Below are positions 13,532-25,019 of a stretch of DNA of 64,000 nucleotides, in pieces. Positions within the stretch are counted from its first letter, which is position 1. Each line of letters starts with the position of its first letter. This stretch comes from Leifsonia sp. ZF2019. Its GTDB lineage: Bacteria; Actinomycetota; Actinomycetes; Actinomycetales; Microbacteriaceae. The translations under genes were made by a program, and so were the position numbers. Under the pieces are notes generated by a model. It saw only the letters and a list, made by a program, of their open reading frames with translations, was not told the origin of the DNA and made no database searches. The stretch spans positions 744,001 through 808,000 of the forward strand of contig NZ_CP065037.1 in the NCBI RefSeq assembly GCF_019924635.1. The letters run 5' to 3'.

Positions 13532-14007
13532 CGATCGAAGCACTCGACATGCTGCTCTCGGACTGGGACGAGCGCCGCCCGTTGCCAGGCTCGACGAACT
13601 ACATGTTCGGCATCCAGAGCCTCATTGACGGACCGTGCGCTATGGACTACGACCCGTGGGTACACGCCGAGGACCTCGCGATCCCGGTCATCGTCAACCC
13701 GAACCTCCCAAGCCCGAAGATGATCGCCGCCTTCTCCCGACGCCGCGGAGCGATCTTCCTCCGCCCAAACCAACGCGACGACGTCGAGCGGTGCGCGCTC
13801 GCGCACGAGATCGTCCACTTCGAGCACCAGGACGTAGGCACCACGCGCTCGCAGGAGGACCGCGCCGACCGCATCGCCGCACAGCGGCTCATCCGGCCCA
13901 CACGTCTGCGCGAGGTCGCGCTTCAGACCGACGATCCCGGCAGGATCGCCTACGAACTCGGCGTCACCGAGCACATGATGCGTATCTACATGAGGAACCA
14001 TGCCTAG
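13528..14007 (+). CDS. ImmA/IrrE-type metallopeptidase
   Basis: A 159-residue protein with the zinc-protease motif HEIVHFEH (HExxH) near residue 96 and a downstream EDRADRIAAQRLI with the third metal-ligand Glu. In ImmA/ImmR systems this protease cleaves the neighbouring repressor to induce the element, and the adjacent repressor here lacks a self-cleavage domain. TTG start in a TTGA overlap with the repressor stop, preceded by GGGGG. Confidence 0.87.
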   Translation: MTIEALDMLLSDWDERRPLPGSTNYMFGIQSLIDGPCAMDYDPWVHAEDLAIPVIVNPNLPSPKMIAAFSRRRGAIFLRPNQRDDVERCALAHEIVHFEHQDVGTTRSQEDRADRIAAQRLIRPTRLREVALQTDDPGRIAYELGVTEHMMRIYMRNHA

Positions 14008-15190
14008 GCCGCCGCTCGTCATCGGCACCTGGGGGCGAATCAACCGCCGGCAAGTCGCACCGAAGCAGTGGGTCGCATCCGCCCGCTACCGCGACCACGA
14101 CGGCGTCACGCGCAAGGTCGAGCGAACCGCGGCCACTGGGCAGAAGGCCGAGGACGCCCTTAAGGACTACCTCACCAAGCGGCTGACGCTGACAGAAGAG
14201 GATCTCACCCAGGAGTCGACAGTACGAGCCGTCGGCGAGGTCTGGCTGCGAGACGAGATCGAGGGAGTGAAGGCGCTCAATACCGAGCGGCGCTACCGCG
14301 AGGTCTTTGAAGGAGTGGTGACCCAGGGCCTCGGCGGCGTGCGCATGCGCGAGATCAGCGTCGCCCGGCTGGACCGATTCCTGAAGCTCACAGCATCCAC
14401 CCGCGGGTCGGCAACGGCCATCGTGACCAAGACCGTGCTCTCCGGCATCATCGGACTCGCCGCGCGCCACGGTGCGATCGACCGCAACCCGCTGCGCGAT
14501 GTCGCCACGATCAAGAAGACCCGGAAGGAGGTCCGAGTCCTGCCCATCGAGCAGCTCTGGGATCTTCGATCCAAGATGTACGCGAACGAGCTCGCCGTCC
14601 TGCGCGACGTGCCGGAGCCGGTCGACTTCATGCTCGGCAGCGGCGCCCGCATCGGCGAGACACTCGCGCTCAGATGGGCGGACCTGGACCTTGAGCACGA
14701 CGTCGCCACGGCACAGATCCGTGCGACGGTGGTATGGGTGAACGGGCGCGGCATGATCATCCAGGAGCACCCGAAGACCTCGTCGTCTCGTCGCCGGCTG
14801 AAGCTGCCCCCGTTCGTCACGGAGATGCTCGAGCGGCGGCGTCTGCGGGAGTCGACGAACGACTTCGACCTCGTGTTCGCTTCGGCCGTCGGAAGCGTGC
14901 GCGCGCCGGCGAACCTCCGTCGACAGTGGAGGGATCTGCGCGAAGAGATCGGATACGACTGGGTCGTGCCGCACACTTTCCGTAAGTCTGTGGCGACGCT
15001 TGCTGAGGACCCGGAGCTGGCGAGCCAGCAGCTCGGTCACTCCGGCACAGCCACGACCAAGCTGCACTACATCCCGCAGGTGCACGAGGGGCCAGACCTG
15101 ACGGAGATCCTGCAGGGGATCGCGGACCCGGCGCTTACCCGGCGGAAACAGTCGGAAACGACGAGCAAGGATGATCGCCGACGAGCGTAG
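14000..15190 (+). CDS. Tyrosine-type site-specific integrase
   Basis: A 396-residue recombinase: an arm-binding-like N-terminus, a core-binding SAM-like domain (residues about 75-170), and a catalytic domain. Catalytic residues are all visible: Arg in GARIGE, Lys in HPKTSSS, His-x-x-Arg in HTFRKS, His in LGHSG, Tyr in HYIPQ. The ATG overlaps the protease stop. It lies 80 bases from a tRNA 3'-end fragment, the expected recombination site. No frame damage is seen. Confidence 0.95.
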   Translation: MPRPPLVIGTWGRINRRQVAPKQWVASARYRDHDGVTRKVERTAATGQKAEDALKDYLTKRLTLTEEDLTQESTVRAVGEVWLRDEIEGVKALNTERRYREVFEGVVTQGLGGVRMREISVARLDRFLKLTASTRGSATAIVTKTVLSGIIGLAARHGAIDRNPLRDVATIKKTRKEVRVLPIEQLWDLRSKMYANELAVLRDVPEPVDFMLGSGARIGETLALRWADLDLEHDVATAQIRATVVWVNGRGMIIQEHPKTSSSRRRLKLPPFVTEMLERRRLRESTNDFDLVFASAVGSVRAPANLRRQWRDLREEIGYDWVVPHTFRKSVATLAEDPELASQQLGHSGTATTKLHYIPQVHEGPDLTEILQGIADPALTRRKQSETTSKDDRRRA

Positions 15191-15634: not shown

Positions 15635-16144
15635 TCACTCCCGCCTCTCTGACAGCACCTTCACCTTTCGCTGGTGCCAGACGATCGGCGTCGGCAGCTC
15701 GTCGCTCATCATCGAGAGCACGCGCAGGACGATGATGTCGTGGTCGCCCGCCGGGTAGCTGTGCTCGACGGCGCACTCGAGCCAGGTGGGAGAACCTTCC
15801 AGGAACACCGCGCCGGAGGGCAGTTCGGCCTTGCGGACGCCGCGGAGACGGTTCCGCTTGTCTCGGGAGGCGAGTTGTCTCGTCTGTCCCGCGTGGTCCT
15901 CGCCGAGGACCGAGACACCGATCGCCGCTGCTGCCGCGAGGTCAGGCCAGGTCGTCGAACTGCGCTGCGCCGCGAAGGAGACCATCGGCGGGTCGAAGGA
16001 GACGCCGACCGAGAAAGAGGAGGTGATCATCACAACCGGCTCCTCCCCGATCATGGCGGCGAGGGCGGCGACGCCGGAGGGGAAGCCGGCGAAGGCCGCG
16101 CGCATCTGCTCGGGATCCGAGGTGAAGTCGTGCGTCATCGTCAT
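15635..16144 (-). CDS. Flavin reductase (split-barrel, HpaC/RutF-like)
   Basis: A 169-residue FMN-binding split-barrel protein. AAFAGFPSGVAALAA near residue 14 and SSFSVGVSFDPPMVSFAAQRSSTTWPDL near 40-67 are the usual HpaC-type flavin-binding segments. It reduces free flavin with NAD(P)H for use by partner monooxygenases. It is the last gene of the nine-gene leftward operon, coupled by ATGA to the FMN reductase. Its likely partners are the two luciferase-family enzymes encoded upstream. Confidence 0.9.
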   Translation of the reverse strand: MTMTHDFTSDPEQMRAAFAGFPSGVAALAAMIGEEPVVMITSSFSVGVSFDPPMVSFAAQRSSTTWPDLAAAAAIGVSVLGEDHAGQTRQLASRDKRNRLRGVRKAELPSGAVFLEGSPTWLECAVEHSYPAGDHDIIVLRVLSMMSDELPTPIVWHQRKVKVLSERRE

Positions 16145-16644
16145 CGCGACCGATCCATCCGCAGAGAGGCGTGGATCGCGGGCGCCCAGGCGTCCACCCA
16201 CTTGTCGAGCGCGCCCTCCTCGGCGTAGCGGGAGTCGAGCTGGTAGAGCCCCTGGGCGGGGCAGACGGCGCCGAGCTCGACCAGCACGGGCTTGAGGGTG
16301 AGCTCGGGGGCGAGCGCATGCGCCGGGCCGGCGCCGAGCATGAGAGGCACGCCGACCTGATCGGCGAGGCCGGTGGCGGTGGCGAACTGGTCGAGGAAGA
16401 GCTTCAGCAGACCGGTGTACGTGCCCTTGTAGGTGGGAGAGGCGGCGACGACCAGATCTGCATCCTGCACTCTGGCGACGGCTTCGGCGACGACCGGGTC
16501 CTCAAAACCCAGGAGACGCGGGCCGAGTTCGGAGACCTCGATGGTCGTCGCGTTCGCGCCGAGGACGGCGGCGAGGCGCTCGGCGGCGTCCCGAGTGCGC
16601 GACTGCGGCTTGGGGTTGCCCACGATGACGGCGGCAGTGAACAT
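16141..16644 (-). CDS. NAD(P)H-dependent FMN reductase (flavodoxin-fold)
   Basis: A 167-residue flavodoxin-like reductase. GNPKPQSRT near residue 9 binds the flavin phosphate. VVAASPTYKGTYTGLLKLFLDQF near 75-97 matches the SsuE/MsuE-type reductases that supply FMNH2. Two reductases of different folds in one operon suggests a high demand for reduced flavin or reduction of a flavin substrate. Start and stop overlap neighbours (ATGA). Confidence 0.9.
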   Translation of the reverse strand: MFTAAVIVGNPKPQSRTRDAAERLAAVLGANATTIEVSELGPRLLGFEDPVVAEAVARVQDADLVVAASPTYKGTYTGLLKLFLDQFATATGLADQVGVPLMLGAGPAHALAPELTLKPVLVELGAVCPAQGLYQLDSRYAEEGALDKWVDAWAPAIHASLRMDRSR

Positions 16645-18410
16645 CAGGAGACATTCCTTTCGTGTGGGTTCCGGGCTGCGGCGAGCAGAGAACGGGCCTC
16701 CCGCTCGTCCTGCCGCATGGCCTCGGCCAGTTCGTCGGGACTCGCGAAGGTCTTCTGCTCGCGGAGGAGCCGATCCGCGGTCACCTCGGCGCGGTGCCCG
16801 TAGAGGTCGCCGGCGAAGTCCAGCACGTGCACCTCGACGGTGTGCGCGCGGCCGGGGAAGGTGTCGTTCGTCCCGATGGAGATCAGGGCAGGCAGCGGCT
16901 TTCTCCACGACTGGGCGCGGAAGCCGCCGATGTAGACGCCGTCGGCGGGCCGGGTGCCGGGCTCTTCCAGGTCGATGTTCGCGGTCGGGAAGCCGAGGCC
17001 GAGGCCGGCGCCTGCGCCGCCGACGACGGTGCCGACGAGGACGCCGCGCCGACCGTCGTCGTGGGCGTCCGCTGGATGCGCGCCGAGGAGCACTGCGGCG
17101 ACGATGCTCAGCACGGCCACGAGCGCGAGCGCGGCCAGTGCGGCAGCATTACCCGTCCACGCCAGCACGACGGCGGTCGCAGCGCTGCCGAGCACGGCGC
17201 CCAGCTGCTTCATCGCATTGAAGGCCCCGGAGGCGGCGCCGATCGACGATCGTGGGACAGCGCTGACGGTAGCGATGGAGAACGGCGACCAGATGAAGGA
17301 GTTCGCGATCCCGAACAGTGCGAACACCGCGGCGATGGTCCAGAGCGGCGCTTCCGCCCAGACCAGCGCGGAGGTGCCGCCGATCGACAGCACGAGCGCG
17401 ACCCCGCCGATGACGGCGACCGTGCGCAGCCCGACGGTGTTGTTCAGCCGGGCCGAGACGGGAGCCGCGAACAGGCACACCACCCCCATCGGGACCAGGA
17501 CCAGCGAGGAGGTCACCACATCCAGCCCCCGGTCCTCCTGCAGCGCCAGCATCAGCGGGATCGGCGCGGAGCCGACGCAGAAGGCGGCGGCCGCAGCGCC
17601 CCACGATGCGGTGACGAAGCCGTTGCTACGAAACAGCGACGTCGGCAGCAGCGCGCGATCGCCCGAGCGGCGCTGCAGCCACACCACGGTCACGACGATC
17701 GCCGCGCCGAGCGCGACCAGAAGCCAGCGCGGGACGTCAGCGACGGAGGCCGAGGCCGCGTCGGTGCCCTGGATGCCGAGGACCAGCGCGGCGACGCCGA
17801 GGGCGTTGCCCGCCATCGCCCAGAGCGGGATGCGCGCGGGCTGCCGCTCCGACACCGGCACCCAGACCAGCACGGCCGCCGCGGCGACCAGACCGATCGG
17901 CAGGTTGACCCAGAAGATCGACGGCCAGCCAGCCGCCCCGACGAGCAAGCCTCCCAGGATCGGCCCGGCGGCAGTGGCGGCGCCGCCGACCGCACCCCAG
18001 ATCCCGAGCGCCACCGCGAGCCGTGGCGGGGCGAACAGGGTGCGGATGATCGTCAGGCATTGCGGCGTCATGAGCGCGGCTCCGACGCCCTGCGCGACGC
18101 GCCAGCCGATCAGCGAGCCGACATCGTGCGCCAGTGCGCACAGCACGGAACCGACGGTGAACGCGGCGAGCCCGATGAGGTAGATGCGCCGGCGGCCGAA
18201 CCGGTCGCCCAGCCTTCCGGCGATCAGCAGGGGCACCGCGTACGCGATCAAGTAGCCGCTGTTGACCCAGATCGCGAAGGTCGCGGTCGTTCCGAGCTCG
18301 GCGATCAATGCGGGCAGGGCGACCGACGTTATCGTGCTGTCCAGCAGCAGCATGAAGAAGCCGAGGCAGAGGCTGGACAGAGCGAGCCAATCCCGCGTCG
18401 ATCGTCGCAC
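16644..18410 (-). CDS. MFS transporter fused to a riboflavin kinase domain
   Basis: A 588-residue two-part protein. Residues 1-445 are a multi-span (probably 14-helix) DHA2-type MFS transporter with the loop motif [16 protein letters not shown] and [18 protein letters not shown]. Residues 454-588 form a riboflavin kinase domain: GTVV, LGFPTAN (Mg/ATP loop), [21 protein letters not shown] with the catalytic Glu, [13 protein letters not shown]. No FAD synthetase domain is present. The linker is about ten residues with no internal start codon. GTG 18410 chosen because GAGGTGG lies at the right distance; GTG 18422 is possible. The fusion suggests import and phosphorylation of riboflavin or a similar flavin. 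Confidence 0.88.
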
Positions 18411-18423
18411 GGCGCCACCCACC

Positions 18424-19749
18424 TCAGACCGCCAGGTTCTCGCGGAGCGTCGAGCCGGGGTACTGCGGCGCGAGGGCACCGCGGCGGCGCAGCTCCGGGA
18501 CGAGCAGCTCGCTCAGGTCGGCGAGACCGGACGGCATCGAGAGGGGGCTCGAGAGCATGTAGCCGCCGCGCGAGCCGGTCTGGGCGAAGTTCTCCTCCAG
18601 GGCGTCGGCCACGGTGGCGGCATCGCCGACGACGGTGTGGTCGAGACCGCTGGCGGCCTCGAAGCCGTGCTCGAAGAACTCGGTCCGGCCGATCGTGTAG
18701 TCCTCGCCGAACTCCGCGACGAGCGCGCCGACGAAACCGCCGGGGCTCGCCTGGGACGCGACGATCTCATCCCGCAGCTCGCCCAGCCGGAACGAGCCGG
18801 GCAGCGTCGAGAAGTCGTACCCGGAGTTGTGCGAGAGCATCGTGCCGATGGCCTCCTCCGTCCAGAACTCGAGCACCGCATCCCGCCGCGCCGCCGCCTC
18901 CGCAGCGGTGCGGCCGACGATCGCCTGCGTCGCCCAGAGGATGCCGACGTGCGCCGGATCGCGCCCCTCTGCGGTGAGCGCCTCGTCGAGCATGCGACGG
19001 TGGCGCTGCTGGCCGGCGATGCTGCCGCCGAACCCGAAGACCAGGTCGGCGAACGCGGCCGACCCGGCGATGCCGCGCGGCGAGTTGCCCGCCTGCACGA
19101 TCACGGGATGCACCTGCGGGCTCGGCACGGAGGCCAGCGGGCCCTTGACGGTGAAGAACCGGCCGTCGTGGTCGATCGGATGCACTTTCGACGGCTCGGC
19201 GAACCGGCCGGTCGCCGGGTCGCGCTCGATCGCGTCCGGGGCCACCGAGTCCCACAGCGCGCGGCAGACGTGGATGAACTCCTCCATCCGCTCGTATCGC
19301 AGGTCGTGGTCGATCAGCTGCGCGTAGCCGTAGTTCGCCGCATCCGCACCGCGGCTGGAGGCGACCACGTTGAAGGCGATCCGGCCGCCGGTGACGTGGT
19401 CCAGCGAGTTGAGGAGACGGGCGACGTAGAAGGGGTGCATGAACGTCGACGAGTAGGTGAGCCCGAAGCCGATGCTCTCCGTCACCGTCGACATGGCGGC
19501 GATGACCGGCGACATGTCCTGCCGGGGCCATTGGATGCCCCACTCGACCGCCGGGTCGATGCTGCCCCGCCAGGTGCTCGGGATCCCGGAGCCGTCGCCG
19601 AAGAACAGCATGTCGACGCCGGCGCGCTCGGCGGTGCGGGCCACCTCCAGATACATGCGCACGTCGGGGAACTGCCGCCCGACCCACGACCCGGGCTGCG
19701 CCCAGCGGCCCTCGGTGTGCGTGAAGGAAAGGTCGTAGGCGATGTGCAT
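18424..19749 (-). CDS. LLM flavin-dependent monooxygenase (NtaA/SnaA/DszA type)
   Basis: A 441-residue luciferase-like monooxygenase of the NtaA/SnaA/DszA group: [52 protein letters not shown] and [14 protein letters not shown] are all typical. The class uses FMNH2 from a separate reductase to oxidise or cleave C-S, C-N and similar bonds. Riboflavin lyase RcaE belongs to the same superfamily, so with a riboflavin kinase and reductases in this operon, flavin cleavage is one candidate reaction. Organosulfur or aminopolycarboxylate substrates remain possible. Confidence 0.9.
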
Positions 19750-19754
19750 GCCGC

Positions 19755-20414
19755 TCAAACGGTCACCTGCTTCCAGAGGGAGACGACCTCGTCGGTGTCC
19801 GAGAGGACCGCGACGTTGAGCTCCAATTGCACGAGCGCGGCCTCGTTGACGGCGAGGTCGTACGCGGCCGTCGCATCCGTCGGCACCACGACCGGCCAGT
19901 CGAGCTGCATGGCGTCCTGCGCGGTCGCGTCGACGCAGCATTCGCTGGTGAGACCCACGATCGTGAGCCAGTCGTAGCCGGCGGCGCGCATCCGCGCGTC
20001 GAGGTCGGTGCCGAGGAAGCCGCTGTAGCCGCGCTTGACGACGCGGAGCTCGCCCTCCGTGGGCTGCATCCGGTACCACTCCGCGCCGGGGGTGCCGACG
20101 ATGCAGGGCTCGGTGGGTCCAATGGGTGCGTCGTAGTCACCCTCGCGCAGCCAGTTGCTCGACCGCCACGGACGGGTCGGGTCGCTGCCGAGCTCCACCC
20201 ACACGACCGGGACGCCCAGTGCGCGAGCGGAGTCCACGAGCGCACCGATGCGGGTCACGGTGGCGTCGAGCTCGGCGACGACCTCGTCCGTCAGTCCGTA
20301 GGCGCCGAGCGCGGCCGGGTCGCCGAAGTCGCGCTGCACGTCCACCACGACAAGGGCCGGGACGCTCCCGGGCCGGGTCAGCTGCGCGAGCTGCGCGTCG
20401 CGGAGGTCGCTCAC
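19755..20414 (-). CDS. Isochorismatase-family amidohydrolase (RutB-like)
   Basis: A 219-residue cysteine hydrolase. The catalytic triad is visible: Asp in VVDVQRDF near residue 25, Lys in VVKRGYSGF near 128, Cys in TSECCVD near 160. KRGYSGFLGTDLD resembles RutB, the peroxyureidoacrylate/ureidoacrylate amidohydrolase. Next to a RutA-like monooxygenase, hydrolysis of a carbamoyl product of pyrimidine-ring opening is likely. The start overlaps the RutA-like gene (ATGA). Confidence 0.85.
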   Translation of the reverse strand: MSDLRDAQLAQLTRPGSVPALVVVDVQRDFGDPAALGAYGLTDEVVAELDATVTRIGALVDSARALGVPVVWVELGSDPTRPWRSSNWLREGDYDAPIGPTEPCIVGTPGAEWYRMQPTEGELRVVKRGYSGFLGTDLDARMRAAGYDWLTIVGLTSECCVDATAQDAMQLDWPVVVPTDATAAYDLAVNEAALVQLELNVAVLSDTDEVVSLWKQVTV

Positions 20415-21475
20415 CGGTCACCGCCCGCGTCGTGCGCGCGCAGGGCCGGGAGCACGGTCTCGCCGAACAGGACCATGTCCTGGTCGTACTCGGGGAAGAT
20501 CAGCATGAGGCCGTCGAGGTCGGCCTCGCCAACGATGTACTGGATGTGCTCGGTCACCGTCTGCGCGGAGCCTGCGACATACGCGGTCTGGAACGCCGCC
20601 TCGCCGACCGCGCCGGAGGCCCAGGCGCGGGCCTGGTCCTCCGGCACGCCCCACGACGCGCGCATGTTCGCCAGCGCCTCCCGGTCGACACCGGCGCCCC
20701 ACTCCTTCACCTTCGCCTCGGCGAGCGCATCCGTCTCGTCCTGGACGACGGTGAGCATGGAGTACGTCTTGCAGGCGCGGCCGTTCGCCGCGGCTCTGGC
20801 GTGGACGTCGGCGGAGAGCTCCTTCATCTCCTCCAGGCTGTCGCCGGCGAGGAAGGCCCCGTCGGCGAAGCGCGCCTGGAAGGCGCGGGCGGCCTCCGAC
20901 TTGCCCGCGCTGATGATGGTCGGCGTGGCCGACGGGTGCGGCCGCGACTCGCAGTCGACCAGGTCGAAGTACGGGGTGTGCATCGTGACGGAGTCCTCCG
21001 ACCAGAGCCGGGTGACGGCCTCCGTCCACAGCTCCGTCATCGTGTACCGGTCGGCGTGGCTGAGCGCGGGGTCCCAGATGCCGAACTGCTCGAACTCCCC
21101 GGCGTAGGCGCCGTTGACGATGTTCATGCCCGCCCGGCCTCCGGAGACGTCCTGCAGCGTGGCGTACATCTTCGCCGCGATCGCCGGGTTGTGCACGTTG
21201 GCGTGCATGGTGGCCCAGATCTTCACCCGCTCCGTGGCCTCGGCCAGCGCTGACATCATGGTCATCGACTCCAGCGAGCGGCCCCAGTGATCGGTCGTGC
21301 CGCCGAAGCCACGCCACTTCGCCATCGACATGATGAAGTCGAGGCCGATCTCCTCGGCGTGGAGGGCCGCACGCTTGTTCCAGGCGTACGTGGCTTCGGG
21401 GTGGGGTGCGGTGGTGGAGAGCATCCAGCCGCCGTTTCCGATCGGGAGGAAGATCCCATAGTCTTTCGCGGGCAT
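20411..21475 (-). CDS. RutA-like pyrimidine monooxygenase
   Basis: A 354-residue LLM enzyme very close in layout to RutA: GIFLPIGNGGWMLSTTAP, FIMSMAKWRGFGGTTDHWGRSLESMTMMSALAEAT, LQDVSGGRAGMNIVNGAYAGEFEQFGIWD, and SRPHPSATPTIISAGKSEAARAF. RutA opens the uracil ring between N3 and C4 with a flavin peroxide. RutC, RutD, RutE and the RutG permease are absent, so the substrate may not be uracil. The isoalloxazine pyrimidine ring is one candidate. Coupled by ATGA to the RutB-like gene. Confidence 0.85.
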   Translation of the reverse strand: MPAKDYGIFLPIGNGGWMLSTTAPHPEATYAWNKRAALHAEEIGLDFIMSMAKWRGFGGTTDHWGRSLESMTMMSALAEATERVKIWATMHANVHNPAIAAKMYATLQDVSGGRAGMNIVNGAYAGEFEQFGIWDPALSHADRYTMTELWTEAVTRLWSEDSVTMHTPYFDLVDCESRPHPSATPTIISAGKSEAARAFQARFADGAFLAGDSLEEMKELSADVHARAAANGRACKTYSMLTVVQDETDALAEAKVKEWGAGVDREALANMRASWGVPEDQARAWASGAVGEAAFQTAYVAGSAQTVTEHIQYIVGEADLDGLMLIFPEYDQDMVLFGETVLPALRAHDAGGDR

Positions 21476-21507
21476 TGAGGGCCTTTCGCTGCGTTCGGTG
21501 GTGGGGC

Positions 21508-22620
21508 TTACGGTGCGGGCCAGATGAGCGTGTCGCCCTTGTAGATGGCCTTGATGTAGGAGTCGTCGAACCACTTCTGCGCCGTCTCGCCGGTCACGTT
21601 GTCCGGGACGATCTGGAACTGGTGCAGCATGTCGACGAGCTTCGTCACGTTGGACTCGTCCATCCCGCCGAGCGGCTGGCCGGGAGTGGGGTTGTCGGCG
21701 ACGACCTTGGTCTCGGTCTTCCAGATGGTCGCGTTGAGCTTCTTGTCGTACGTGGCGCCGCCGGAGAGGTCGGCCGCGAAGCCGACGCACTTCTCGGTGT
21801 TCGCATCGCTGGAACTGCAGTAGTCGTAGGCGTGCAGTGCGGCGCGGAGGATGTCCTGCACCGCGGTCGGGTGGGCTTTGGCGAAGGCCGGGTTGACCGC
21901 CATCGCGCCGAGCGAGCTGGGGATTCCGTACGTGACCGGCTGCCAGACCGTGACCTTGTCGCCGGCCGCCTTGAGCTGGTTGGGCTCGTTGGAGATGAAG
22001 CCGGTGAGGGCGGCGAGGCCGTCCTGCTTGCGCGGCAGCACCGAGGGGTCGTAGCCCTCCTTGACCAGGGTGAGCGACTTCCAGTCGACGCCGGCCTTGA
22101 CCATCATCGCCTCGACCGCGGCGGGGACGTATCCCTTGTGGCCGACGACCTTGCCATCCAGCTGCGTGAGGTCGGTGATGTCGGGGTTGGTCATCAGGAT
22201 GTCGAGGCCCGCGTTCGAGTACGACGAGATCCCCTCGATGTCGATGCCGTTGGCCCGCGCCTGGATGAGGTCCTGCTGGGAGATGGCGGAGACAGACGCC
22301 TGCCCGCTGGCCAGCAGCTTCGTGTTCTGGGCGGTGTCGCCGGTCCCGGGCTTCAGCTGCACGTTCAGGCACAGGTCGTCGAAGTAGCCGAGCTTGCTGG
22401 CGGCGACGTACTCCAGGATCGAGGCGGACGACTGGAACTGGTAGCCGGAGAGGTACGTGATCGTGCCGGCCTTCTTGTTCTCGGCACAGCGCTCTGCCGA
22501 GATGGCCTTGCCGGACGACGCGGAGTCTGCGGGGGAGCCGGAACTGCACGCGGCGACACCGAGCGTCAGGACGACGGCGGTGAGGGACGCGAGACCGGCC
22601 TTGATGAGACGGTGCTGCAT
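21508..22620 (-). CDS. ABC substrate-binding lipoprotein (NMT1/THI5-like)
   Basis: A 370-residue secreted lipoprotein. A basic signal peptide ends in LGVAAC, with Cys26 as the lipidation site. The mature protein resembles the NMT1/THI5 group that binds pyrimidine- and aromatic-type ligands (YLSGYQFQSSASILEYVAASKLGYFDDLCLNVQLKPG, LASGQASVSAISQQDLIQARA). Riboflavin-binding RibY and thiamin-pyrimidine ThiY proteins belong to this group, as do sulfonate-binding proteins. It delivers the operon's substrate to the permease encoded upstream. Confidence 0.88.
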   Translation of the reverse strand: MQHRLIKAGLASLTAVVLTLGVAACSSGSPADSASSGKAISAERCAENKKAGTITYLSGYQFQSSASILEYVAASKLGYFDDLCLNVQLKPGTGDTAQNTKLLASGQASVSAISQQDLIQARANGIDIEGISSYSNAGLDILMTNPDITDLTQLDGKVVGHKGYVPAAVEAMMVKAGVDWKSLTLVKEGYDPSVLPRKQDGLAALTGFISNEPNQLKAAGDKVTVWQPVTYGIPSSLGAMAVNPAFAKAHPTAVQDILRAALHAYDYCSSSDANTEKCVGFAADLSGGATYDKKLNATIWKTETKVVADNPTPGQPLGGMDESNVTKLVDMLHQFQIVPDNVTGETAQKWFDDSYIKAIYKGDTLIWPAP

Positions 22621-22733
22621 GGGTCACTCCTTCGGGGGATGGGGTGGTGCAGGGGTGCGCGATGGCAGGGGTGGGCCTGGTCGCCGGTCGGCGACAGGTG
22701 GGAGGAGCGCGAGGAGGGCGGGAGCGCCCTCGC

Positions 22734-23594
22734 TCAGTCGGTCGAGCTCTCGTGCCAGTGCAGGACGCGACGCTCGATCAGGGTGATGAGGGCGAGCAGG
22801 AGGACGCCCATGACCGCGAGGACGAAGATGGCCGCGTAGACCACGGCGAGCTGGTTCATCGACGACGCGACGCTGATGGCCGTGCCGAGACCGCCCGTCG
22901 ACCCGGAGGCGGAGAGCTCGGCGACGACCGCGCCGATGATCGACAGCGGGAAGACGATCCGCAGGGCCGCGAAGATGTACGGCAGCGCGTTGGGGATGCG
23001 GAGGTGGACGAGCATCTCCAGGCGGGACGCATCCATCGTCTTGTACACCTGCATCACCTGCTGCGGCACCGACCGGAGGCCGACCGCGGTGTTGATGAGG
23101 ATGGGGAAGAAGCAGATCAGCGCGGTGATGATGAGCTTCGGCAGCGGACCGAAGCCGAACGCGACGACGAGGGCCGGCGCGATCGCCACCAGCGGCGTGA
23201 CGTTGAGCACGACCGCGATCGGCATGATCGCCCTGCGCGCCACCGGCAGCTCACTGATCAGCACGGCGACGACGAACGCGGCGACGAAGCCGATCGCCAG
23301 CCCGGCCGTCGCCTCGCCCAGGGTGATGAGGGCGTTGCCGAGGTAGTAGCCGATGTTGTCGGCCAGGGAGTCGCCGATCGCCTGCAGCGGGGGGAGCAGG
23401 TAGGGCATGGATGCGGCGCCCCACTGCCAGAGCCCGGCGAGGAGGGCGAGCATGACGACCAGCGGAAGCCACACCGTGGGCCGGATCCACGCCAGCCGCG
23501 ACTTCGGGTGCTTGAGGCTGAACCGCGAGGGCTCGGCGGGGACGCCGTCCTGCAGGGTGTGCGACACGGCGGCCCGTTCTGTTGCGACGCTCAT
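22734..23594 (-). CDS. ABC transporter permease (SsuC/ThiX/RibX-like)
   Basis: A 286-residue inner-membrane permease with about six helices. The EAA-like cytoplasmic loop is near residues 175-205 (VYKTMDASRLEMLVHLRIPNALPYIFAALRI). It pairs with the binding protein at 21508 and the ATPase at 23606. The 113-base gap to the binding-protein gene is the longest in the operon. Start at ATG 23594 gives a soluble 30-residue N-terminus, usual for the family. Confidence 0.9.
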   Translation of the reverse strand: MSVATERAAVSHTLQDGVPAEPSRFSLKHPKSRLAWIRPTVWLPLVVMLALLAGLWQWGAASMPYLLPPLQAIGDSLADNIGYYLGNALITLGEATAGLAIGFVAAFVVAVLISELPVARRAIMPIAVVLNVTPLVAIAPALVVAFGFGPLPKLIITALICFFPILINTAVGLRSVPQQVMQVYKTMDASRLEMLVHLRIPNALPYIFAALRIVFPLSIIGAVVAELSASGSTGGLGTAISVASSMNQLAVVYAAIFVLAVMGVLLLALITLIERRVLHWHESSTD

Positions 23595-23605
23595 CTCGTA
23601 ACCTC

Positions 23606-24433
23606 CTACGCCGCGTCCGTCGATCGCCACGCGGAGCGCAGGCGATCCCTGATCAGGTCTTCGTATTCGTGGAAACGGCGGTCCTCGAACAGCTTCTGGT
23701 TGCGCGGCCGCGGCAGGTCGATGTCGATCACGTCGACGATGCGACCAGGACGCGGCGCCATCACGACGACGGTGTCGGACATCCGTACGGCCTCGGAGAC
23801 CGAGTGCGTGACGAACAGGACCGTGGTCTTCAGCTCGTCCCACAGGTCGAGGAGCTGGTCCTGGAGGCTCTCGCGGGTGAACTCGTCGAGAGCGGAGAAC
23901 GGCTCGTCCATCAGGAGGACATCCGGCTGGAGGCCGAAGGCCCGCACGATCGCCGCACGCTGCTGCATGCCGCCGGAGAGCTGGGCGGGGAGCTTGTGGG
24001 CGGCATCCGCCAGCCCGGCCCGGTCGAGCAGCTCGAGCATGTCGGGGGATTGGTCGCCGCTGCCGCGCTCGGCGAGGTGGCCGATGCGCTGGCGCCGCTT
24101 GGCGGCCCCCGGGTTGATCTTCTGCGGCAGGGTCACGTTCTGCAGCACCGTCAGCCACGGCAGCAGCGCCGGGGTCTGCGGCACGAGCCCGATCAGCTTC
24201 GCCGCGCCCGCCTCACCGGGCGTCACGTCGTGGACGCGGACCTCGCCGCGACCGGCCGACTCGAGCCCGGCGACGATGCGCAGCAGCGTCGACTTTCCGC
24301 ATCCGCTCGGGCCGATGAGGCTGACGAACCGTCCCGGCTCGATGGACAGGTCGACGTCGTTCAGCGCGACCATCGCAGAAGACCCGTACCCGTAGACTTT
24401 GCCGACCGAGGTCAGCTCTACCGCTGGCGTCAC
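23606..24433 (-). CDS. ABC transporter ATP-binding protein (SsuB/TauB/ThiZ-like)
   Basis: A 275-residue ATPase. Walker A GPSGCGKST near residue 47, signature LSGGMQQRAAI near 145, Walker B DVLLMDEPFSALD near 168, switch His in VTHSVSEAVRM. It powers uptake through the permease encoded 11 bases downstream. GTG start at 24433 preceded by GGAGGG at eight bases. It is the first gene of the nine-gene flavin operon. Confidence 0.92.
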   Translation of the reverse strand: MTPAVELTSVGKVYGYGSSAMVALNDVDLSIEPGRFVSLIGPSGCGKSTLLRIVAGLESAGRGEVRVHDVTPGEAGAAKLIGLVPQTPALLPWLTVLQNVTLPQKINPGAAKRRQRIGHLAERGSGDQSPDMLELLDRAGLADAAHKLPAQLSGGMQQRAAIVRAFGLQPDVLLMDEPFSALDEFTRESLQDQLLDLWDELKTTVLFVTHSVSEAVRMSDTVVVMAPRPGRIVDVIDIDLPRPRNQKLFEDRRFHEYEDLIRDRLRSAWRSTDAA

Positions 24434-24593: not shown

Positions 24594-25019
24594 TTAACTC
24601 TGAGCGTGGAGAGGGGTGACAGCAGCACCGTCGAACAGGTACACCTCGACGCCGAGATCCGCCGCCGCGACGGCCACCCACCCGTTGAGCGCGCGGGCGG
24701 TGACCGCGTTCACCACCACCGCCGCTCGCTCGACCTTCGGGTCTGCCGCGCGCAGCCAGAGGAGCTTGAACATGTCGGCCATCACCTTGTTGCGGTAGGA
24801 CGACCGGTAGGAGCCTTGGTTCGCGACCAGTTGCACCACGATCGCGCCCGCGGCATCCATGCCCTCGACCTCGACGCGGACGCCCCCAGCGAGCAGCAGC
24901 TGGCGGGGTCGTAAGGACGTTCCGAGCCGGTCGCCGAGCGCGGCTAGCATCAGCCGCTCGACGGAGTCTTCGCCGAAGCGTTTCCACTCCGCTGCACCGG
25001 ACTCGTCTGGACCTTCCAT
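24594..25019 (-). CDS. Hypothetical protein
   Basis: A 141-residue soluble protein of unknown function. The core (RVEVEGMDAAGAIVVQLVANQGSYRSSYRNKVMADMFKLLWL and LNGWVAVAAADLGVEVYLFDG) alternates strands and helices and somewhat resembles small PD-(D/E)XK-like folds, but no catalytic set can be assigned. It lies upstream of the flavin operon on the same strand with a 160-base gap, so it is probably a separate unit. Confidence 0.6.
   Translation of the reverse strand: MEGPDESGAAEWKRFGEDSVERLMLAALGDRLGTSLRPRQLLLAGGVRVEVEGMDAAGAIVVQLVANQGSYRSSYRNKVMADMFKLLWLRAADPKVERAAVVVNAVTARALNGWVAVAAADLGVEVYLFDGAAVTPLHAQS

What the first reader, a model, noticed from the sequence alone, without database searches (positions are those of the whole stretch)
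15635..24433. Nine-gene flavin operon: candidate riboflavin/lumichrome catabolic system
One leftward operon joins an NMT1/THI5-type ABC importer, two different LLM monooxygenases, a RutB-like hydrolase, a riboflavin kinase domain and two flavin reductases of different folds. A kinase, a reductase and an LLM-type riboflavin lyase are the core of the riboflavin catabolic cluster known from Microbacterium maritypicum. The RutA/RutB-like pair could then open the pyrimidine ring of lumichrome. The ribokinase of that cluster is absent here, so the pathway would differ. The combination, with an ABC importer, looks undescribed. Alternative: the flavin genes only supply FMNH2 for an unrelated substrate such as an organosulfur compound.
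Basis: partly seen in the sequence, partly recalled or inferred. Interest (0 to 1): 0.8.

Follow-up and report, generated by a model that had tools for sequence, protein, structure and literature searches.

The report
Actinobacterial heterocycle-opening operon with flavin kinase
Many actinobacteria share an uncharacterised gene set that seems to import a ring compound and cut it open with reduced-flavin enzymes; it is not the known vitamin B2 lyase cluster, but it shares that cluster's type of importer and a flavin kinase, so a flavin is a testable guess for the substrate.

Summary
The operon is real: nine co-directional ORFs (15635-24433, minus strand). Corrections: the riboflavin kinase (RFK) is the C-terminal domain of one 588-aa MFS-transporter protein, and a tenth conserved gene (24594-25019) precedes the ABC genes. 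The set recurs in Actinomycetota (LLM1, hydrolase and LLM2 in 56 of the 80 loci kept of 334). The LLM at 18424-19749 is not a riboflavin lyase: 33% to RcaE, sixth-best RcaE match in its own genome, DszA side of the tree; true RcaE orthologues sit in other genomes of the family. Yet true Rca clusters carry an importer of the same binding-protein subfamily (301 bits against 87 for the next protein), a flavin reductase and, in 2 of 5, an RFK. LLM1 is RutA-like: O2-pocket Thr/Asn kept, Trp139 changed to Ala/Ser in 12 of 12, suggesting a substrate larger than uracil. The hydrolase resembles RutB, biuret hydrolase and carbamoylsarcosine amidase. Best reading: import, flavin-N5-type oxidative opening of a uracil-like ring, ureido hydrolysis, a second monooxygenation, export, with dedicated FMN supply. 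Substrate unproven; flavin or alloxazine about 0.3.

The parts
24594..25019 (-).
   Evidence: no Pfam match over cut-off; homologue in 63 of 80 related loci; upstream of the ABC genes in Leifsonia and Streptomyces loci, downstream in Actinoplanes loci
23606..24433 (-). ABC importer ATPase
   Evidence: PF00005; 50-51% to the ATPase of five Rca clusters
22734..23594 (-). ABC importer permease
   Evidence: PF00528; 43-44% to the Rca permease
21508..22620 (-). ABC substrate-binding lipoprotein (NMT1/THI5 type), same subfamily as the Rca-cluster SBP
   Evidence: PF09084; profile A4 scores an Rca SBP 301 bits, the next protein 87 bits, in 60 genomes; tree
20411..21475 (-). LLM1, RutA-like FMN-dependent monooxygenase
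   Evidence: RutA HMM 241 bits, under cut-off 498; RutA Thr105/Asn134/Lys69 equivalents invariant in 12, Trp139 changed to Ala/Ser
19755..20414 (-). RutB-like cysteine hydrolase, predicted ureido/carbamoyl hydrolase
   Evidence: PF00857; Asp25, Lys127, Cys159 invariant in 12 of 12; profile hits cysteine hydrolase 6xix, RutB, N-carbamoylsarcosine amidase
18424..19749 (-). LLM2, NtaA/DmoA-family FMN-dependent monooxygenase, DszA side of the family
   Evidence: TIGR03860 358 bits over cut-off 279.7; best PDB match DszA 214 bits, RcaE fifth at 165 bits; tree
16644..18410 (-). MFS (EmrB/DHA2 type) transporter fused to a C-terminal riboflavin kinase domain
   Evidence: MFS_1 14-408, Flavokinase 456-575; fusion in 13 of 80 loci; RFK motifs kept in 21 of 21 operon RFK rows
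16141..16644 (-). NAD(P)H-dependent FMN reductase, SsuE-like flavodoxin fold
   Evidence: PF03358; TIGR03567 86 bits, under cut-off 164
15635..16144 (-). flavin reductase, split-barrel fold
   Evidence: PF01613; 35-44% to the flavin reductase called in four of five Rca loci

Best explanation
A catabolic or nitrogen-scavenging operon for an imported heterocycle that holds a uracil-like (cyclic ureide) ring and is bulkier than uracil. The ABC transporter brings the compound in. LLM1, with FMNH2 from one reductase and O2, opens the ring oxidatively next to a carbonyl by RutA-type flavin-N5-(hydro)peroxide chemistry and leaves a ureido acid. The cysteine hydrolase cleaves the ureido group to amine, CO2 and ammonia. 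LLM2, with FMNH2 from the other reductase, carries out a second monooxygenation or C-heteroatom cleavage on the remnant. The MFS part exports what is not used. The RFK domain keeps FMN in supply and would trap riboflavin if the substrate is a flavin. Shown by sequence: gene content, homology, expected catalytic residues, conservation, and kinship of the binding protein with that of the Rca (riboflavin) cluster. Inferred: the order of steps, direction of the MFS, roles of RFK and LLM2, and the substrate (flavin/alloxazine about 0.3; another pyrimidine-, pteridine- or purine-like compound about 0.35; the rest open).
For: LLM1 is nearest to RutA by profile (264.6 bits against 172.5 for the dimethylsulfone enzyme) and keeps the O2-pocket residues Thr105 and Asn134 (equivalents) in 12 of 12, while Trp139 on the substrate side is Ala/Ser in 12 of 12; the two sampled 35-37% paralogues keep Trp139. 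The hydrolase groups with ureido/carbamoyl hydrolases and has the Asp-Lys-Cys triad. LLM1 and the hydrolase share the locus in 65 of 80 actinobacterial loci, and relatives (LLM1 44-47%, hydrolase 36-38% where the window query matched) lie together in four proteobacterial plasmid clusters. The SBP subfamily is shared with the Rca importer; its nearest solved relative is ThiY, which binds a pyrimidine. Of 56 loci with LLM1, hydrolase and LLM2, 47 have a flavin reductase homologue and 49 an MFS. Operon RFKs form a group apart from 29 housekeeping RFKs (SH-aLRT 85).
Against: No enzyme was assayed. RutA and RutB equivalog cut-offs are not reached (241 of 498 and 63 of 378 bits). No Rfam match in the window or in 14 further loci, seven of them Rca or f20 loci. 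RFK is present in only 19 of 80 loci, 17 of 56 with LLM1-hydrolase-LLM2, and 2 of the 12 family genomes with the operon, so it is not essential. The SBP subfamily also serves a locus with an alcohol-dehydrogenase-like gene and no flavin gene seen. In the four proteobacterial clusters no LLM2, RFK or NMT1-type SBP was seen (annotation, which is incomplete; ORFs by eye). Support for the RFK group is moderate and its split from housekeeping is weak (68).
Confidence: 0.6

Rival explanations
1. One reading: a riboflavin catabolic system in which the LLM at 18424-19749 is an RcaE-type riboflavin lyase that releases lumichrome.
For: RFK, flavin reductase and an importer of the Rca subfamily are present.
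Against: LLM2 is 33% to RcaE, sixth in its own genome; other side of a branch with SH-aLRT 99; true RcaE orthologues in 5 of 150 family genomes, none holding this operon; no ribokinase among the operon's proteins, whereas a ribokinase-like ORF follows RcaE in four of the five Rca loci (by eye).
Confidence: 0.04
2. The flavin genes only supply FMNH2 and the substrate is an organosulfur compound: LLM2 works as a sulfone monooxygenase like DszA and LLM1 like the dimethylsulfone enzyme.
For: LLM2's best solved match is DszA, and six of seven DszA active-site residues have identical, invariant equivalents (His11, Asp52, Ser131, His148, Arg151, Tyr152); LLM1's second-best solved relative is the dimethylsulfone enzyme; one reductase is SsuE-like. 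An extra RFK also lies about 10 kb from an LLM gene in another genome, G116, so RFK may serve LLM enzymes in general.
Against: DszA His316 is Asn308 in 12 of 12; the SBP scores only 35 bits against the sulfonate model, cut-off 163.5, and falls with the Rca SBPs; a ureido-type hydrolase has no obvious place in desulfuration. Sulfur-assimilation neighbours were not searched for systematically.
Confidence: 0.12
3. The substrate is a thiamin-type pyrimidine (HMP, FAMP or a breakdown product) or a free pyrimidine base, imported by a ThiY-like protein and opened in a Rut-like way.
For: The SBP profile's nearest solved structure is the FAMP-binding protein ThiY (91.6 bits); RutA/RutB-like enzymes.
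Against: An Rca SBP is much closer than ThiY (301 against 92 bits); no TPP riboswitch; RutA's Trp139, which borders the substrate-side cavity (PMC10005588 passages), is lost; 4-aminopyrimidines lack the amide that RutA attacks (recalled chemistry).
Confidence: 0.18
4. A detoxification operon against a flavin-like or pyrimidine-fused antibiotic (roseoflavin- or toxoflavin-like), with the MFS as efflux pump.
For: The MFS part matches drug-efflux models best; antibiotic producers such as Streptomyces share the habitat and the operon (names; habitat recalled).
Against: An ABC importer is kept in most loci (SBP in 76 of 80), which is odd for a toxin defence.
Confidence: 0.06

Closest known systems
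Rca riboflavin catabolic cluster (Microbacterium maritypicum; RcaE, PDB 5w48)
   Same: NMT1-type ABC importer of the same SBP subfamily, an LLM monooxygenase, a flavin reductase and (2 of 5 loci) an RFK.
   Different: No RcaE orthologue and no ribokinase here; two other LLM enzymes and a ureido-type hydrolase instead; RFKs of the two systems do not group together.
Rut pyrimidine pathway (E. coli RutA-G)
   Same: RutA-like monooxygenase with conserved O2 pocket, RutB-like cysteine hydrolase, split-barrel flavin reductase.
   Different: No RutC, RutD, RutE or RutG family among the operon proteins; both enzymes far below the Rut equivalog cut-offs; Trp139 lost; extra LLM2, RFK and ABC importer.
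Lum lumichrome pathway (Nocardioides simplex, PMC12746152)
   Same: In concept: opening of a uracil-type ring followed by hydrolysis of the urea moiety (LumH, LumI).
   Different: LumH opens the ring by hydrolysis, here an oxidative LLM is predicted; no P450, Rieske, xanthine-oxidase-type or TPP-enzyme family among the ten operon proteins. Homology to LumI could not be tested (no sequence at hand).
DszA / NtaA-DmoA family monooxygenases
   Same: LLM2 passes the TIGR03860 cut-off and keeps FMN-site residues.
   Different: Own group in the tree; DszA His316 replaced by an invariant Asn; different operon partners.
ThiXYZ FAMP importer
   Same: SBP fold family; ThiY is the nearest solved structure.
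   Different: Long branch between ThiY and this SBP subfamily; no TPP riboswitch found; thiamine genes were not searched for.

Membership tests
Rca riboflavin catabolic cluster | RcaE-type riboflavin lyase | tested here: not met
   33%, sixth in own genome; other side of a 99 branch
Rca riboflavin catabolic cluster | ribokinase | tested here: not met
   no PfkB family among the operon proteins
Rca riboflavin catabolic cluster | riboflavin kinase | tested here: met
   PF01687 over cut-off, motifs intact; but present in only 19 of 80 related loci
Rca riboflavin catabolic cluster | importer of the Rca SBP subfamily (a feature seen here in 5 of 5 Rca loci, not taken from the literature) | tested here: met
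Rca riboflavin catabolic cluster | turnover of riboflavin | not testable with these tools
   needs enzyme assay
Rut pyrimidine pathway | RutA equivalog score | tested here: not met
   241.3 bits, cut-off 498.3
Rut pyrimidine pathway | RutA O2-pocket Thr105 and Asn134 | tested here: met
   12 of 12; residues named in PMC10005588 passages
Rut pyrimidine pathway | si-side cavity Trp139 and Glu292 | tested here: not met
   Trp139 is Ala/Ser in 12 of 12; Glu292 kept in none of 12
Rut pyrimidine pathway | RutB equivalog score | tested here: not met
   62.7 bits, cut-off 378
Rut pyrimidine pathway | Asp-Lys-Cys triad of the hydrolase | tested here: met
   Asp25, Lys127, Cys159 invariant, aligned with RutB; that these are the triad is recalled
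Rut pyrimidine pathway | RutC, RutD, RutE, RutG partners | tested here: not met
   no such family among the operon proteins; the rest of the genome was not searched for them
NtaA/DmoA-family FMN monooxygenases (TIGR03860) | family score | tested here: met
   LLM2 358.1 bits, cut-off 279.7
DszA-type sulfone monooxygenase | active-site His20, Asp59, Ser139, His156, Arg159, Tyr160, His316 | tested here: inconclusive
   the first six have identical equivalents in 12 of 12, His316 is Asn308 in 12 of 12; residues named in PMC11134501 passages
Aliphatic sulfonate uptake (Ssu) | SsuA-family SBP score | tested here: not met
   35.2 bits, cut-off 163.5
Riboswitch-controlled flavin or thiamine uptake | FMN or TPP riboswitch | tested here: not met
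   no Rfam match at gathering score in the window or in 14 further loci; the genome's one FMN riboswitch match is therefore outside the window

The most novel reading that the evidence does not exclude
The operon is a dedicated flavin-degrading system that differs from Rca/Lum: imported riboflavin or lumichrome is attacked at its pyrimidine (C) ring first, by a RutA-type flavin-N5-peroxide enzyme, and the ureido product is hydrolysed for nitrogen, the quinoxaline remnant being exported. C-ring-first is the order of the lost Pseudomonas RF route, whose enzymes were never reconstituted and whose strain was not kept (PMC12746152). A flavoenzyme would then use a relative of its own cofactor as substrate, and the transporter-RFK fusion would couple transport to phosphorylation.
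Probability: 0.25. Interest if true: 0.8.

Novelty: new variant of a known kind. Interest (0 to 1): 0.55.

Why it matters
A gene set spread over many actinobacteria (named loci include Leifsonia, Curtobacterium, Streptomyces, Actinoplanes, Nonomuraea and, in part, Nocardiopsis) has no assigned substrate in the papers whose listings I saw. The binding-protein subfamily shared with the riboflavin cluster gives a short list of ligands to test. If flavins are the substrate, a second, widespread route of vitamin B2 breakdown exists and the old Pseudomonas RF route gets candidate genes. Even if not, LLM1 is a RutA relative with an opened pocket, useful for learning what flavin-N5 chemistry can attack, and a transporter fused to riboflavin kinase is an unusual domain pair.

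Tried and rejected
RcaE identity of LLM2: rejected. Claim that the ABC importer is peculiar to this operon: rejected, since the 5 Rca loci read each have one. FMN or TPP riboswitch as a clue to the substrate: none in the window, in seven related loci or in seven Rca/f20 loci. An FMN-riboswitch survey of 296 genomes, meant to find actinobacterial RibY for comparison, was run but its loci were not examined. Shared origin of Rca RFK and operon RFK: not supported, the two Rca RFKs group with housekeeping ones. Defence-system link of U140: no PADLOC match for the two sequences tried; no Pfam match over cut-off for the window's U140. Fold prediction of U140 and of the SBP: not obtained. Proteobacterial context was read for a substrate: Kozakia and Novosphingobium clusters add Rieske oxygenases, formamidases, an extradiol dioxygenase or a ribokinase-like kinase (216 bits, under the cut-off 300); these would fit a C-ring-first flavin route but equally other heterocycles, so I give them little weight. 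Literature: the listings (titles and starts of abstracts of the rows shown) held no paper that I recognised as being on this operon; the library holds only open-licence papers. The search counts in the 80 loci rest on my own ORF scorer; at least L109 (hydrolase) and L088 (LLM2 in two pieces) are counted as lacking a gene that tblastn shows.
Full report
OBSERVATION. The nine ORFs lie on the minus strand from 24433 to 15635, with overlaps or short gaps. Two corrections matter. First, riboflavin kinase is not a separate gene: 18410-16644 is a single 588-residue ORF, MFS (EmrB/DHA2 type) at residues 14-408 and Flavokinase at 456-575. The genome's other RFK lies in a 486-residue open frame elsewhere, by its place in the tree the housekeeping one. 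Second, a gene at 24594-25019 precedes the ATPase. Its protein (U140 here) has no Pfam match over cut-off, but a homologue is near LLM1 in 63 of 80 related loci. It moves within the operon: upstream in Leifsonia and Streptomyces loci, downstream in Actinoplanes loci. In L090 one 261-residue ORF falls both in the U140 cluster and among the RFKs.

DISTRIBUTION. A search of 150 genomes of the family with LLM2 gave 39 with a match at 1e-60; 12 of them, the own one included, hold an orthologue at 65-100%, each beside LLM1 and the hydrolase. Nine of the 12 have the ABC genes just upstream in the same direction; the other three (L036, L040, L041) have a related ABC set, with another ORF between (an alcohol-dehydrogenase-like one in L036, by eye), running divergently. 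RFK is in the operon in 2 of the 12, G000 and G060. One scan of GTDB contigs with the LLM1 alignment gave 334 relatives, of which the best 80 were kept. The two nearest are Leifsonia (100% over LLM1). In these 80 loci, 15 of them with cut flanks, I find hydrolase 65, LLM2 57, SBP 76, permease 72, ATPase 73, U140 63, split-barrel flavin reductase 51, FMN reductase 31, DHA2 MFS 30, another MFS 20, RFK 19 (13 fused to the MFS, 6 not). Loci with LLM1, hydrolase and LLM2 number 56; 47 of them have a flavin reductase homologue, 49 an MFS and 17 an RFK. Genes were called by a home-made ORF scorer, and a few are missed (L109 hydrolase, L088 LLM2).

LLM2 IS NOT RcaE. By sequence its best solved relative is DszA (214 bits), then LadA, DmoA and HcbA1, with RcaE fifth (165 bits). 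With a profile of 12 orthologues DszA scores 287 and RcaE 207 bits. Searching the own genome with RcaE at 1e-10 gives eight matches; the window's LLM2 is sixth (33%, 162 bits), the best is 41% and 286 bits. In 150 family genomes true RcaE orthologues (73-80%) occur in five (G089, G082, G006, G080, G063), none of which is among the 12 genomes with the operon. In a 70-row tree the 31 operon sequences form one group (94) next to a 57-60% paralogue group, and DszA lies on the same side of a branch (SH-aLRT 99) whose other side holds the five RcaE orthologues, 5w48, LadA, DmoA and HcbA1 (quick search, no bootstrap, midpoint root, some long branches).

WHAT THE TRUE Rca CLUSTERS LOOK LIKE. I read five loci (L139-L143). 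Each has an NMT1-type SBP, ATPase and permease directly before RcaE and a divergent gene that looks PadR-like (by eye). In four of five the ORF caller shows a ribokinase-like ORF after RcaE (by eye) and a flavin reductase; in the fifth, L140, a plain reading shows the end of a flavin reductase in front of an RFK. RFK lies in the cluster in G063 and G082 and not in G089, G006 or G080, which have a single RFK. The functions RcaA kinase, RcaB reductase, RcaD ribokinase, RcaE lyase are recalled from the abstract of Xu 2016, which is not held; PMC12746152 (parts 1-3 of 6 read) confirms RcaE and gives the Lum pathway. An ABC importer is thus an ordinary part of the Rca loci read here.

THE IMPORTER. 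Profile A4 was built from nine operon SBPs and the three SBPs of the divergent, ADH-type sets. Over 60 family genomes it matched nine at E<=1e-20: four operon SBPs, two ADH-type SBPs (G011, G026), a G029 SBP beside an alcohol-dehydrogenase-like gene (436 bits), the Rca SBP of G006 (301 bits) and, far below, a G008 protein (87 bits). ThiY, the best solved relative, scores 92 bits. Over 296 genomes of the class, with fewer candidates scored per genome, 12 matched at 1e-40; two, of one genus, carry Rca-like SBPs (269 and 275 bits) in an ABC set about 6 kb from ribA- or ribH-like genes (by eye), not in one operon with them. The SBP tree shows operon SBPs as one group (99), Rca plus those two as another (100), the ADH type apart, and all of these far from ThiY. 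The whole subfamily shares a Cys pair (Cys45, Cys84) and a C-terminal Ile-Trp-Pro stretch. This is the best substrate clue: kinship with what is presumably a riboflavin importer. It is not proof, since the ADH-type members stand in a locus where I saw no flavin gene, and RibXY-type transporters are thought to vary in substrate (PMC4418817, passages).

THE RFK. In 150 family genomes eight have more than one RFK; of the nine extra copies two are in this operon, two in Rca clusters and five elsewhere. I looked at three of those five (G007, G087, one of G116). The G116 one lies about 10 kb from an LLM gene. So extra RFKs are rare, and several are near LLM enzymes. Operon RFKs (15 fused rows, two of them from one genome, and 6 not fused) form one group (SH-aLRT 85) apart from 29 housekeeping RFKs, the split itself being weak (68); the two Rca RFKs fall among the housekeeping ones. 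All 21 rows keep the PTAN, GxNxTF and E-x-[HY]-x-LD stretches (motif roles recalled). Either FMN supply or trapping of riboflavin explains this.

LLM1 AND THE HYDROLASE. LLM1 scores best with RutA by profile (264.6 bits). RutA residues named in PMC10005588 (passages) were mapped: Thr105 and Asn134, which hold O2 beside N5, are identical in 12 of 12, as is Lys69; Trp139, on the si side, is Ala or Ser in 12 of 12; Glu292 is kept in none. The two sampled paralogues of the 57-60% LLM2 group (L044, L047) keep Trp139. Four proteobacterial sequences also have Ala or Ser there by eye. Hence RutA-like oxygen chemistry with a wider pocket is likely. The hydrolase has Asp25, Lys127 and Cys159 invariant; its nearest solved relatives by profile include a cysteine hydrolase (6xix), RutB and N-carbamoylsarcosine amidases, and RutB and biuret amidohydrolase are its best NCBIfam models, below cut-off; such enzymes act on ureido or carbamoyl groups (partly recalled). 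In LLM2 six DszA active-site residues have identical equivalents and His316 is Asn (DszA residues from PMC11134501, passages).

WIDER MODULE. On plasmids LLM1 relatives at 44-47% occur in Kozakia, Acinetobacter, Novosphingobium and Paraburkholderia. The hydrolase matched in three of these at 36-38%; Acinetobacter's copy is annotated beside LLM1 and matched with the Novosphingobium query. Paraburkholderia and Acinetobacter have MFS, LLM1, hydrolase, an M20-type protein (weak match for the one scanned), flavin reductase and an HTH regulator. So LLM1 plus hydrolase looks like the older core; the importer, LLM2, RFK and U140 look like actinobacterial additions.

MECHANISM AND SUBSTRATE. I commit to oxidative ring opening by LLM1, ureido hydrolysis, and a second monooxygenation by LLM2, fed by dedicated FMN and FMNH2 supply, with confidence 0.6 for this general scheme. 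A flavin or alloxazine substrate gets about 0.3, because of the importer, the RFK group and the widened pocket. PMC12746152 summarises three older riboflavin routes; [quoted passage not shown] The present set could encode such a start. That is the bold reading and remains untested.

NOVELTY. Every enzyme family is known except U140; the combination is a new variant of flavin-dependent heterocycle catabolism. I recognised no paper on it in the listings.

Noticed in passing
window 24594-25019: Conserved ~140-aa operon protein (U140) without Pfam match over cut-off; invariant Q63, G69, R76, N77, K85, L86, W88, W114, A118 over 37 sequences. Fused to RFK in L090.
   Followed up: partly
window 13549-15190: A tyrosine-recombinase-like ORF (14000-15190, plus strand) and a small HExxH metalloprotease-like ORF lie just beyond the operon's 3' end (by eye); of the two same-genus genomes drawn, G125 has no LLM2 match and G055 only a 35% one, so the operon may have been gained. 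No tRNA found in the window.
   Followed up: no
L139-L143: Five loci of the family with true RcaE orthologues, each with an NMT1-type ABC importer; RFK in two (G063, G082).
   Followed up: partly
L044-L047: A paralogous system: LLM1-like (35-37%, keeps RutA Trp139 in the two checked) and LLM2-like (57-60%) with a ~557-aa protein and, in L044 and L047, a GntR-like regulator (by eye); substrate unknown.
   Followed up: no
L084, L086: Amycolatopsis: LLM1 with RFK (in L084 also the hydrolase) and an IclR-like regulator (by eye), without LLM2 or the ABC genes; perhaps a minimal form.
   Followed up: no
L241-L244: Proteobacterial plasmid clusters with the LLM1-hydrolase pair and, variously, flavin reductase, M20-type protein or Rieske oxygenase; no substrate assigned in the annotation seen.
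   Followed up: partly
L154, L036, L040, L041: SBP of the same subfamily in an ABC set with another ORF between (alcohol-dehydrogenase-like by eye in L154 and L036); in L154 also an MFS 42% like the window's and a LacI-like regulator (by eye).
   Followed up: no
   Followed up: no
L175, L176: Rca-like ABC importer about 6 kb from ribA- or ribH-like genes (by eye) in one genus of the class; no riboswitch in the stretch.
   Followed up: no
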